A stretch of DNA of 64,000 nucleotides from Persephonella hydrogeniphila (GTDB lineage Bacteria > Aquificota > Aquificia > Aquificales > Hydrogenothermaceae): assembly GCF_900215515.1 (NCBI RefSeq), contig NZ_OBEI01000007.1, positions 1-64,000 of the forward strand, read 5' to 3'. A program made the translations under genes and the position numbers. The notes under the pieces are model-generated. The model was not told where the DNA came from. It saw only the letters and a list, made by a program, of their open reading frames with translations, and did no database searches. This document shows positions 16,006 through 19,150 of this stretch, in pieces; position 1 is the first letter of the stretch, and the number at the start of each line of letters is the position of its first letter.

Positions 16006-16047
16006 TTGACTGCAATCAATCCCCTTTCCTTTATATAGTTTTATAAT
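16006..16047 (+). promoter_or_regulatory. FNR/DNR-type box with class II promoter
   Basis: TTGAC-TGCA-ATCAA at 16006-16019 matches the FNR/DNR consensus TTGAT-N4-ATCAA in 9 of 10 half-site bases. A perfect TATAAT lies at 16042-16047. If transcription starts 7 bases after it (16054), the box centre (16012.5) falls exactly at -41.5, the class II activator position. An AT-rich palindrome (15993-16007) overlaps its left edge. It would drive the NO-reductase-like operon starting at 16124, with a leader of about 70 bases and a GGGGAGGG ribosome site. Confidence 0.7.
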
Positions 16048-16123: not shown

Positions 16124-16714
16124 ATGACTACTTCTGCTGAAGTTTTATTTGCTCTTAAGATTGTTTACACAATTTATGCTTTTGCCATTATTTCTCTGGT
16201 AGGATGGTTTGCTTATAGTGTTACAAAAAAACCACAGACTTACAAAACATGGATAACACCAAAGGTTTTTTACAGTTACCTCGGTATTCTTGTTTTGATA
16301 GGAGTCGGTATACATATACTCACTTACAACAAAATACCGTGGGTTGCATGGGAACTTAAAAAACACAAAATTCCTGCTGACAGAGAAATAGTAATAAAAG
16401 TAAAAAATCACCAGTTTATTTTTCCTGAACCTACTCCTATTACTATAAAATGCGGTGAAGTAATAAGGTTCAACGTTCTCAGTGAAGATCTCACTTATGG
16501 TTTTGGTCTTTTCAGACCTGATAATTCTATGGTTTTTCAAATGCAGGTGGTTCCAAACCATGACAATATCCTTCTGTGGCAGTTTCACGAAGAAGGAAAG
16601 TTTTATGTCCTGAGCACGGAATATTCTGGTCCAAAAGGAGCAAGAATGAAGGTTTCAGATGCATTTAGAGTAATAAACTGCAACAATAAAATCGCAATGG
16701 AGGGAAAAAGATGA
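16124..16714 (+). CDS. Subunit II-like protein of a heme-copper oxidase/NO reductase, lacking CuA
   Basis: A 196-residue membrane protein with two N-terminal helices (about 8-30 and 48-66) and a periplasmic cupredoxin domain. It aligns with COX2 around SEDLTYGFGLF and VVPNHDNILLWQFHEEGKFYV. The CuA-binding CxExC is STEYS: both cysteines are serine (164 and 168), and the ligand His residues are lost (Y for H in the DxxH strand, G before ARM). It therefore cannot bind CuA and probably serves as a structural or quinol-linked subunit. GGGGAGGG precedes the ATG. Its stop overlaps the next start (ATGA). Confidence 0.8.
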   Translation: MTTSAEVLFALKIVYTIYAFAIISLVGWFAYSVTKKPQTYKTWITPKVFYSYLGILVLIGVGIHILTYNKIPWVAWELKKHKIPADREIVIKVKNHQFIFPEPTPITIKCGEVIRFNVLSEDLTYGFGLFRPDNSMVFQMQVVPNHDNILLWQFHEEGKFYVLSTEYSGPKGARMKVSDAFRVINCNNKIAMEGKR

Positions 16715-18369
16715 AAATAAAAGATATTTTTATAAACGGTAACCAAGGAGGTTTAGATCATACATCACTCAGTCCTTTACAAAAAATAACACTTAGATTT
16801 GTTGTTATAGGTCTTTTATTTTATGGAGTTGCAGCTATCGAAGGAATGCTTATGAGAGGTCAGGAAATAAAACCTTTACCTTTTATAGATGACAGCCACT
16901 TTTTTGCTATCATGACAGCACACCCTATTGTAGGAATATTCGGTTCAACATATCTCATTGTTTTTGGAGCATTTCTGTTTCTTGTACCCTATCTTATGAA
17001 AAAACCTATATTCAGTATAAAACTCGCAAATTTTACATGGATTATTATGACAATAGGAACTGTTCTAGTCTGGCTTTCCGGATTTATATTCCATTACGCA
17101 CCTCTTTATACTGTTTATTGGCCTTTACCAGTAGATTTCAACCAATTTAGCGTGGCTGGAGCTACGATGTTTGCTGTCGGTCTGGCTTTCATAATGATTG
17201 GAACGCTGGCATTTATAGTTAATATTTATGGAACAGTCTTTTATACACCTAAAGGGCAAAAAAAACAGCCCATAAAACCTCTTCTTATGAGTGCTTTCGG
17301 CATAGATGGATTATTAAACATATTAAATAAAATTAGAGGAAAAGAACCCTATGTAAAAGAGCCTCCTCTTTCTCTTCCTATAGTTGCAATATTTAGAGGT
17401 ACAGTTGATACATTTCTTGATGCTCTGGTTATACTCGGTGCGGGATTATTAATCTTGTTCTACATAGGAAACCATGTATTTCAATGGGGGCTTCATTACC
17501 ATTCAGTAGATGCTCTTTTATACAAAAATATATTCTGGTGGGGGTTAGACCTTATAGCAGATGGTCTGGTTCTTATATACGTTGCAGGGACATGGTATCT
17601 TCTGGCTATGCTCATAACAGGAAGAAATCTTTTTATGCAGAATATAGCAAGGGCTGCTCTTTTACTAGAGCTAATAGTTTCATGGGCTGTGTGGAGTCAT
17701 CATCTTTTATCTGATCAACCCCAGCCTGAAATAATGAAACTTGCATCTGGGGAAATGATTACAGCATTTGAGCTTATAACTCAAGGTCTTGCATTTTTTA
17801 TAACATTAACCACTTTATGGTTGGCAAGGCCTCTAAAAATGACCAATGAACTCAAATTTTTGCTTGGAGGACTCCTTGGATTTGCTCTGGCAGTTCCTGC
17901 AGGTATTATACAAGCAGACATAGGTATGAATAGATTACTGCATAACACCCAGTGGGTTGCAGGTGCTCATTTCCATGTTGCTATACTTGTAGGACTTACT
18001 ATGACACTGTACAGTGCTATCTATATAATGCTTCCCATATTGACAAACAATTCTGTTAAACTTTTCAGCCAGAAACTTGCAAACTGGCATTTTTGGCTCC
18101 ATTTGATCGGAGGTATAGGGATGGGTGCATTTATGGGTATGGCTGGAATAGATGGTATGCTTAGAAGGCATGTTTATATAGAAGGGGAATTCTTAGGTTA
18201 CATGATACTTGCCGGTATATGCGGAGCTATGCTGCTTCTTGCATGGATTATATTTATGTTCAATATAATTGCAACAATCGGAATAAAAGGAATAATAGGT
18301 ATATTTCTCCCTTCAAAATTAGAAAAGGAAATCATTGTTCCAGAAACAGTTACAACTGCAAAAGGTTGA
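16711..18369 (+). CDS. NO-reductase-like heme-copper oxidase subunit I
   Basis: A 552-residue membrane protein with about 12-14 helices. The heme ligands are present: His71 in TAHPIVG (low-spin heme) and His420/His422 in GAHFHVA. Two of the three CuB/FeB histidines remain (His330-His331 in WSHHLLSD). The helix-VI histidine is replaced by Asp280 in FWWGLDLIADG, which aligns better with the NorB pattern WWVVHLWVEG than with oxidase GHPEVY. The NorB Glu position is Asp284, and the oxidase active-site Tyr is absent. NO reduction is therefore more likely than O2 reduction, though the family assignment is inference. It is coupled to subunit II and the next gene. Confidence 0.8.
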   Translation: MKIKDIFINGNQGGLDHTSLSPLQKITLRFVVIGLLFYGVAAIEGMLMRGQEIKPLPFIDDSHFFAIMTAHPIVGIFGSTYLIVFGAFLFLVPYLMKKPIFSIKLANFTWIIMTIGTVLVWLSGFIFHYAPLYTVYWPLPVDFNQFSVAGATMFAVGLAFIMIGTLAFIVNIYGTVFYTPKGQKKQPIKPLLMSAFGIDGLLNILNKIRGKEPYVKEPPLSLPIVAIFRGTVDTFLDALVILGAGLLILFYIGNHVFQWGLHYHSVDALLYKNIFWWGLDLIADGLVLIYVAGTWYLLAMLITGRNLFMQNIARAALLLELIVSWAVWSHHLLSDQPQPEIMKLASGEMITAFELITQGLAFFITLTTLWLARPLKMTNELKFLLGGLLGFALAVPAGIIQADIGMNRLLHNTQWVAGAHFHVAILVGLTMTLYSAIYIMLPILTNNSVKLFSQKLANWHFWLHLIGGIGMGAFMGMAGIDGMLRRHVYIEGEFLGYMILAGICGAMLLLAWIIFMFNIIATIGIKGIIGIFLPSKLEKEIIVPETVTTAKG

Positions 18370-18372
18370 AAG

Positions 18373-18966
18373 ATGTTAAATCTGGAAAAAGTAGCAAGGC
18401 AGATTAAAGAAGAAGGACTTTACACGTTTATCTATAACGAGATGAAAGAAATAGCAGGCAAAGGAGAGCTTTCTGAAAAGGAAGTTCTCCATCTTTTAAA
18501 AGAAGAACCGAAATTTCTGCAGGATTATAAAACACTCAATACCCAAAGTGAGATAAGTAATATACAGATTGCTCAGCAAGAGATCTTTGATACAGATTCG
18601 GCAGAATGTAAAGAACTTAAGGAAACGATTAACAGAAATAGAAAAGAATTGATAAAATTAGAACCTTACGAAAGCAAACCTGATAGTATGCTTTATGCAG
18701 TATGGATAGGTTCTGCTACTATCTTTTTGATATTTGTTATACACAATCTGATAGTCCTGTACACATTCTGGTATGAGAACTATCCTTTATTAGTATATAC
18801 ATCGTATATGGTCGTGTGTGTCCTCGGATATGTATACTACAGAAAAAGGATAAAAGATCATATCAGGAAATATCTATTATTTAAACAGATAGAAAAAGAG
18901 ACTAAAGAATTGATAAAAAAAGGCATTGAAGAAGGGTATCTCAGCAGGAGTAAAATTTACGAATAA
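18373..18966 (+). CDS. Two-helix membrane protein of unknown function, third gene of the oxidase unit
   Basis: This 197-residue protein starts 3 bases after the subunit I stop and is surely cotranscribed. It has a charged, helical N-terminal part (about 1-105), two transmembrane helices (about 112-132 and 142-160) and a basic helical tail. No heme-, metal- or cofactor-binding motif is visible and I do not recognise the family. It may be an assembly factor or an accessory subunit of the NO-reductase-like complex. Confidence 0.7.
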   Translation: MLNLEKVARQIKEEGLYTFIYNEMKEIAGKGELSEKEVLHLLKEEPKFLQDYKTLNTQSEISNIQIAQQEIFDTDSAECKELKETINRNRKELIKLEPYESKPDSMLYAVWIGSATIFLIFVIHNLIVLYTFWYENYPLLVYTSYMVVCVLGYVYYRKRIKDHIRKYLLFKQIEKETKELIKKGIEEGYLSRSKIYE

Positions 18967-18967
18967 T

Positions 18968-19090
18968 TTACTCATCTCCTCTATTCTCCTGCTCCTTTCT
19001 TTTTTTTAGTGCAGGTCTAAGTCTCATATAAATAAGGAAAACCATAGTACCTACGTATATTAAAAACATCAAAACTATAAGCCATTTCAT
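18968..19090 (-). CDS. 40-residue membrane microprotein
   Basis: A short gene with good signals. Read on the - strand, AAAGGAG lies about 6 bases before ATG, and 40 codons encode one transmembrane helix (about residues 3-22), a basic stretch RLRPALKKRKEQ and an acidic end. This is the usual topology of CcoQ- or CydX-like small subunits, but it faces the oxidase unit on the opposite strand, with one base between the two stops. Its promoter would lie in the 60-bp gap shared with the divergent symporter gene (TATAAT-like sequence on the - strand). Confidence 0.65.
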   Translation of the reverse strand: MKWLIVLMFLIYVGTMVFLIYMRLRPALKKRKEQENRGDE

Positions 19091-19150
19091 ATAAATCTCC
19101 TTTTATTCCCAATTATAATATTTAAAACAATTATACAGCAGGAGATATCT

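What the first reader, a model, noticed from the sequence alone, without database searches (positions are those of the whole stretch)
16124..18966. NO-reductase-like heme-copper complex with Asp in place of a CuB/FeB histidine and no CuA
Seen: subunit I keeps His71, His330/331, His420 and His422, but the helix-VI metal ligand is Asp280 (FWWGLDLIADG). The NorB glutamate position is Asp284, and the oxidase Tyr is absent. Subunit II has Ser164/Ser168 where CuA cysteines belong. Known: NO reductases lack the His-Tyr crosslink and CuA, and NOR-type families with altered ligands have been proposed in this superfamily. Inferred: this is a non-canonical NO reductase with a 2-His/Asp metal site and a third, unknown subunit (18373-18966).
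Basis: partly seen in the sequence, partly recalled or inferred. Interest (0 to 1): 0.85.

Follow-up and report, generated by a model that had tools for sequence, protein, structure and literature searches.

The report
gNOR-type nitric oxide reductase operon
This is a membrane enzyme of a known but biochemically untested family (gNOR) that probably turns nitric oxide into nitrous oxide, in which two aspartates replace a metal-binding histidine and the tyrosine of ordinary respiratory oxidases, carried by a heat-loving denitrifying bacterium beside its standard nitric oxide reductase.

Summary
Subunit I (16711-18369) has Asp280 at the CuB/FeB helix-VI histidine position and Asp284 at the Tyr (oxidase) or Glu (cNOR) position; two profile-profile alignments and a phmmer alignment agree. 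Subunit II lacks CuA (Ser164/Ser168). The genome is Persephonella-like, with Nap, NirS, qNOR and NosZ. Homologues occur in Persephonella, Nitratiruptor, Sulfurimonas, Sulfurovum, Ignavibacteria, Bacteroidota and several archaea. This matches the described gNOR family (norGH; active-site residue D; Sulfurimonas/Sulfurovum/Persephonella). Asp280 and Asp284 are present in all 60 sequences checked. The tree gives one clade outside A-, B- and C-family oxidases and cNOR/qNOR. New here: invariant Glu354 aligns with the catalytic helix-VIII Glu of cNOR/qNOR and with no acid in oxidases; a Crp/Fnr-type box (16006-16019) is conserved upstream of 25 of 53 homologues and recurs near nosZ, nirS, qNOR and cbb3; one Sulfurimonas copy sits in the nirS cluster. 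The third gene follows only Persephonella/Nitratiruptor-type copies. NO reduction and metal ligation by Asp280 remain inferred. The organism also has qNOR, so this enzyme is probably auxiliary. Verdict: a member of a known, uncharacterised family, with useful new anatomy.

The parts
16124..16714 (+). gNOR subunit II (NorH/NorG-like partner): N-terminal membrane part plus cupredoxin fold; CuA ligands lost (S164-T-E-Y-S168-G-P-K-G-A-R-M)
   Evidence: CoxB TIGR02866 1.2e-5, weak; family alignment; directly upstream of subunit I in every homologous locus that is not cut there
16711..18369 (+). gNOR subunit I, heme-copper superfamily, 552 aa
   Evidence: COX1 1.1e-52; AF2 pLDDT 82.8, pTM 0.86; Foldseek to cytochrome c/quinol oxidases, TM about 0.7; clade support 100/100
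17548..17550 (+). codon of Asp280, at the helix-VI CuB/FeB His ligand position
   Evidence: invariant in 60/60
17560..17562 (+). codon of Asp284, at the oxidase Tyr / cNOR FeB-ligand Glu position
   Evidence: invariant in 60/60
17770..17772 (+). codon of Glu354, at the helix-VIII Glu of cNOR/qNOR (P. aeruginosa Glu280, numbering from memory); hydrophobic in oxidases
   Evidence: invariant in alignment A2
16613..16627 (+). codons of Ser164 to Ser168 in subunit II: degenerate CuA loop
18373..18966 (+). lineage-specific accessory gene (197 aa, two likely membrane spans by inspection), no known family
   Evidence: in Aquificota only downstream of gNOR apart from one marginal hit, and in Nitratiruptor-type loci L040-L042
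16006..16019 (+). Crp/Fnr-type palindrome TTGACTGCAATCAA, about 105 bp upstream of the subunit II start
   Evidence: TTGA-N6-TCAA upstream of 25/53 homologues, shuffled mean 0.44, max 4; one of only 18 TTGAY-N4-RTCAA sites in the genome

Best explanation
The operon encodes a gNOR-type nitric oxide reductase of a Persephonella-like denitrifier. Shown by sequence: the heme-copper fold, five of the six canonical heme/metal histidines, two aspartates at the helix-VI ligand and Tyr/Glu positions, an invariant helix-VIII Glu, no CuA, and a denitrification setting. Inferred: electrons enter from quinol (no CuA, no cytochrome c domain), pass through the low-spin heme (H71/H422) to a high-spin heme (H420) facing a non-heme metal, more likely iron than copper, held by H330, H331, Asp280 and perhaps Asp284. 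Two NO bind there and are joined to give N2O and water, with Asp284 and Glu354 doing the proton and metal work of the cNOR glutamates. It acts as an auxiliary NO sink beside qNOR, under Crp/Fnr-type anaerobic or NO control.
For: Family: homologues in exactly the genera listed for gNOR, with D at the active-site position. PMC8906906 calls gNOR (norGH) quinone-oxidising and non-electrogenic, consistent with the lost CuA. NOR-like active site: D284 at the cNOR Glu position and E354 at the second cNOR/qNOR Glu, with no acid at the latter in 13 oxidase or Q-type rows; no Tyr in 60/60. Setting: own genome has NapB/NapD, NirS, NirJ, qNOR and Sec-type NosZ. A Sulfurimonas copy lies in a cluster with nirS, heme d1 genes and cNOR. 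The Crp/Fnr box is shared with the nosZ, nap/nir, qNOR and cbb3 regions of the same genome. All 12 Aquificota gNOR genomes have NosZ, against 26 of 124 others (one lineage, so not independent).
Against: gNOR is named as proposed, not characterised, in the papers read. Every complete Persephonella with gNOR also has qNOR, and most Campylobacterota carriers have cNOR, so NO reduction is already covered. Ignavibacteria and Bacteroidota carriers, and most archaeal ones, show no true NirS. The Crp/Fnr box also precedes the cbb3 O2 reductase, so it does not single out NO.
Confidence: 0.77

Rival explanations
1. It is a microaerobic O2-reducing quinol oxidase that has lost the cross-linked Tyr.
For: Closest solved relatives are oxidases. 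The Crp/Fnr box is shared with cbb3. Some carriers lack NirS.
Against: No Tyr in any of 60 sequences, helix-VI His replaced, invariant NOR-type Glu354. Clade lies outside A and B oxidases. Most bacterial carriers already have cbb3 or A-family enzymes.
Confidence: 0.1
2. It belongs to the superfamily but uses another substrate or reaction, for example NO dismutation or another N-oxide, which would explain why it sits beside qNOR or cNOR.
For: Redundancy with canonical NORs. It is the sole COX1-family protein in five archaeal genomes, four of them with no detected NirS.
Against: Active-site acids match cNOR/qNOR rather than a new pattern. One copy lies inside a nirS cluster.
Confidence: 0.09
3. 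Within the gNOR reading: Asp284, not Asp280, is the metal ligand (a 2-His-1-carboxylate site), and Asp280 is only a proton or water site.
For: MAFFT can slide the oxidase His onto Asp284. In cNOR the Glu at this position is a metal ligand (established knowledge). Two His plus one carboxylate is a common non-heme iron motif.
Against: phmmer and profile alignments put Asp280 on the His; both Asp are equally invariant, so both may bind.
Confidence: 0.25

Closest known systems
gNOR (norGH), proposed NO reductase family of Sulfurimonas, Sulfurovum, Persephonella and Methylomirabilis
   Same: Genera, two-subunit cupredoxin-type layout, Asp at the Tyr position, no CuA
   Different: Nothing that excludes membership; the window locus adds a lineage-specific third gene. 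The His-to-Asp280 change was not found described in the papers held; that Murali et al. 2024 report altered active sites for these families is from memory only
cNOR / qNOR
   Same: Acid at the Tyr position, Glu in helix VIII, no CuA
   Different: Far apart in the tree; helix-VI His kept in cNOR/qNOR; different second subunit or fused domain
B-family oxygen reductases (ba3 type)
   Same: Best sequence match among solved structures; cupredoxin subunit II
   Different: They have the helix-VI His, Tyr and CuA; separate clade
Q-type HCO near nirS in Aquificaceae and Thermus (probably eNOR)
   Same: Non-canonical NOR candidate, no Tyr
   Different: Keeps the helix-VI His, Gln at the Tyr position, Lys at the low-spin heme His position in most rows; separate clade

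Membership tests
gNOR | Asp at the active-site Tyr position (PMC8756737 Table A4) | tested here: met
   D284
gNOR | Groups with Sulfurimonas/Sulfurovum/Persephonella proteins | tested here: met
   63-92% identity, one clade 100/100
gNOR | Second subunit with cupredoxin fold, quinol rather than cytochrome c donor | tested here: inconclusive
   Subunit II cupredoxin-like without CuA; the donor was not tested
gNOR | No conserved proton channel | not tested
   Channel positions were not mapped systematically; a conserved acid at 320 in helix VII (E or D) was noted
gNOR | NO reduction to N2O | not testable with these tools
   needs biochemistry
cNOR/qNOR | Three His plus Glu at FeB; NorC or fused quinol domain | tested here: not met
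   Helix-VI His is Asp; no cytochrome c subunit; tree distance
A/B-family O2 reductase | Cross-linkable Tyr and three CuB His | tested here: not met
   Asp284 and Asp280
A/B-family O2 reductase | CuA in subunit II (cytochrome c oxidases) | tested here: not met
   S164/S168
eNOR | Gln at the Tyr position (PMC8756737 Table A4) | tested here: not met
   Asp284; the Q-type forms another clade

The most novel reading that the evidence does not exclude
gNOR built a cNOR-like iron site independently on an oxidase-like scaffold: a 2-His/2-Asp non-heme iron centre plus Glu354, with archaeal members, one still bearing CuA, recording the change from a cytochrome c-fed to a quinol-fed enzyme.
Probability: 0.4. 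Interest if true: 0.65.

Novelty: new member of a known kind. Interest (0 to 1): 0.42.

Why it matters
NO reductases make N2O, a major greenhouse gas. gNOR is one of the proposed NOR families without biochemistry in the papers read. The invariant Asp280/Asp284/Glu354 set gives exact residues to mutate, and the conserved Crp/Fnr box and thermophilic hosts give practical ways to test function. A 2-His/2-Asp site in a heme-copper enzyme would bear on which metal and which ligands are needed to join two NO molecules.

Tried and rejected
A viral-contig scan found nothing. Plasmid tblastn found only distant A/B oxidases, used as references. Pfam and NCBIfam gave no family for the third gene. The key paper (Murali et al. 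2024, PNAS) is not held, so the published gNOR ligand set could not be checked. The idea that a complete Persephonella uses gNOR as its only NOR was rejected: all also carry qNOR. The idea that the third gene is a core subunit was rejected: it is absent from other bacteria and archaea. The MAFFT placement of the oxidase His on Asp284 was rejected after profile alignments and the D/N anchor 13 residues upstream.

Full report
What is there. Three co-directional ORFs at 16124-16714, 16711-18369 and 18373-18966 overlap by 4 bp or lie 3 bp apart, so they probably form one operon. The middle one is a heme-copper subunit I (Pfam COX1 1.1e-52; AF2 model pLDDT 82.8, pTM 0.86; Foldseek best matches are cytochrome c and quinol oxidases at TM about 0.7). 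The first is a cupredoxin-type subunit II (weak CoxB match). The third has no known family. The genome (2.0 Mb, 19 contigs) is close to named Persephonella MAGs: the nearest named relatives of subunit I, at 88-92% identity, are Persephonella and Aquificota MAGs. The name is inferred, as G handles bear none.

The observation. The key question was whether Asp280 really sits at the helix-VI histidine. phmmer against ba3 oxidase, hhalign against B-family oxidases and hhalign against cNOR/qNOR all put Asp280 on the His, and Asp284 on the Tyr position or on the cNOR Glu. A D or N lies exactly 13 residues upstream of the ligand in ba3, cNOR, the Q-type and here (D267; read). A multi-family MAFFT run put the oxidase His on Asp284 with a gap; I regard this as an artefact, but it leaves open which Asp holds the metal. 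Nearby H262/H264 are not conserved across the family.

The family. A genome-contig scan returned 51 loci. The gNOR-like ones are in Persephonella, Nitratiruptor, Sulfurimonas, Sulfurovum, other Campylobacterota, Bacteroidota, Ignavibacteria and Woeseiaceae, plus archaea (Geothermarchaeota, Aigarchaeota, Nitrososphaeria, Thermofilaceae) at 40-46% identity. Asp280 and Asp284 are present in 60/60 sequences, some of them near-identical. Table A4 of PMC8756737, modified from Hemp and Gennis 2008, lists gNOR with active-site residue D in Sulfurimonas, Sulfurovum and Persephonella. PMC8906906 describes gNOR (norGH) as quinone-oxidising and non-electrogenic; PMC6094997 lists it in Methylomirabilis. 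PMC11388526 says sNOR, gNOR and nNOR are proposed from phylogenomics, while cNOR, qNOR, bNOR and eNOR are characterised. A tree of 69 proteins puts all gNOR rows in one clade (100/100), apart from A oxidases, B oxidases plus Q-type, cbb3, and cNOR/qNOR. Deep joins involve long branches and should not be trusted.

New active-site detail. Glu354 is invariant in alignment A2. In both the multi-family alignment and the profile alignment it falls on the helix-VIII Glu of cNOR/qNOR, where the oxidase and Q-type rows have A, V, L or I. With Asp284 this gives gNOR the same pair of acids as cNOR although it lies far from cNOR in the tree, which suggests convergence towards NO chemistry (inference). gNOR rows also carry one extra residue before the proximal heme His (GxHxH for GHxH).

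Electron input. The CuA loop reads STEYSGPKGARM in the window and STEYSGPxHxxM in most archaea. One Thermofilaceae MAG (L077) keeps a full CuA set (THGFGVF ... CTEYCGFRHSEM) together with FWWGLDLVADG. So the subunit descends from a CuA protein. Loss of CuA suggests quinol as donor; this is inference.

Setting. The same genome carries NapB and NapD, NirS, NirJ and a qNOR on contig C10 and a Sec-type NosZ on C5. All complete Persephonella with gNOR also have qNOR and cbb3. Most Campylobacterota carriers have cbb3 and a cNOR near nirS. In Sulfurimonas locus L052 the genes just upstream are cytochrome c, NirJ, a NirF-like protein and NirE/CobA, and nirS and cNOR lie on the same contig within about 10 kb. 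Rrf2 or Crp/Fnr regulators precede gNOR in L054, L056 and L057. In five archaeal genomes gNOR is the only COX1-family protein found. All 12 Aquificota gNOR genomes have NosZ, against 26 of 124 without gNOR (Fisher p 5e-8), but these are one lineage.

Regulation. TTGACTGCAATCAA at 16006-16019 is a Crp/Fnr-type box. TTGA-N6-TCAA occurs upstream of 25 of 53 homologues (all Persephonella and most Campylobacterota), against 0.44 expected (close relatives are not independent). TTGAY-N4-RTCAA has only 18 sites in the genome (reversed control 7). Besides gNOR, sites lie at the start of the nosZ operon beside a Crp/Fnr gene, inside the nap/nir cluster, upstream of the qNOR operon and upstream of the cbb3 operon. 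This ties gNOR to anaerobic and microaerobic respiration but does not separate NO from O2.

Third gene. In Aquificota it is found only directly downstream of gNOR (11 genomes, plus one marginal hit elsewhere). Outside Aquificota it was seen only in Nitratiruptor-type loci L040-L042. It is a lineage-specific accessory, not part of the core enzyme.

Conclusion. The finding is real and is a member of a known, proposed family. The most likely function is an auxiliary quinol-fed NO reductase. Asp ligation, metal identity and substrate are inferred. What is added here is the Asp280/Asp284/Glu354 pattern, the conserved regulatory box, the archaeal members with a CuA-bearing relative, and the limited range of the third gene.

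Noticed in passing
L016-L030, L156 (Thermus thermophilus plasmid pTF24b), L157 (Thermomicrobium roseum plasmid): HCO subunit I with Gln at the Tyr position and, except in L157, Lys in place of the low-spin heme His (HFK for HFH), a few kb from nirS in Aquificaceae genomes and on the Thermus plasmid; fits eNOR by the Gln. Annotated simply as b(o/a)3 or cbb3 oxidase on the plasmids.
   Followed up: partly
L077 2289-3824 and its subunit II at 1713-2285 (Thermofilaceae MAG JALURH010000216.1): gNOR-type subunit I with FWWGLDLVADG but a subunit II that keeps a full CuA set; the same genome has a NirS-like cytochrome d1 protein (6e-100). Nested among CuA-less archaeal copies, so multiple losses or a regain.
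   Followed up: partly
genomes of L067, L069, L077, L080, L082: Archaeal genomes in which the gNOR-like protein is the only COX1-family protein found; four of the five show no NirS hit.
   Followed up: partly
window 18966-19097, minus strand: Small ORF for a 40-aa single-span membrane protein (MKWLIVLMFLIYVGTMVFLIYMRLRPALKKRKEQENRGDE) just after the operon.
   Followed up: no
window subunit I residue 320 (codon 17668-17670): Acidic residue inside helix VII (Glu in bacteria, Asp in archaea), hydrophobic or aromatic in all other families compared; possible proton site.
   Followed up: no
L056 3876-4331: A 152-aa protein resembling a fragment of COX1 (1.3e-7) directly upstream of the gNOR pair in Ignavibacteria, near a DUF6448-hemerythrin protein and a Crp/Fnr regulator.
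   Followed up: no
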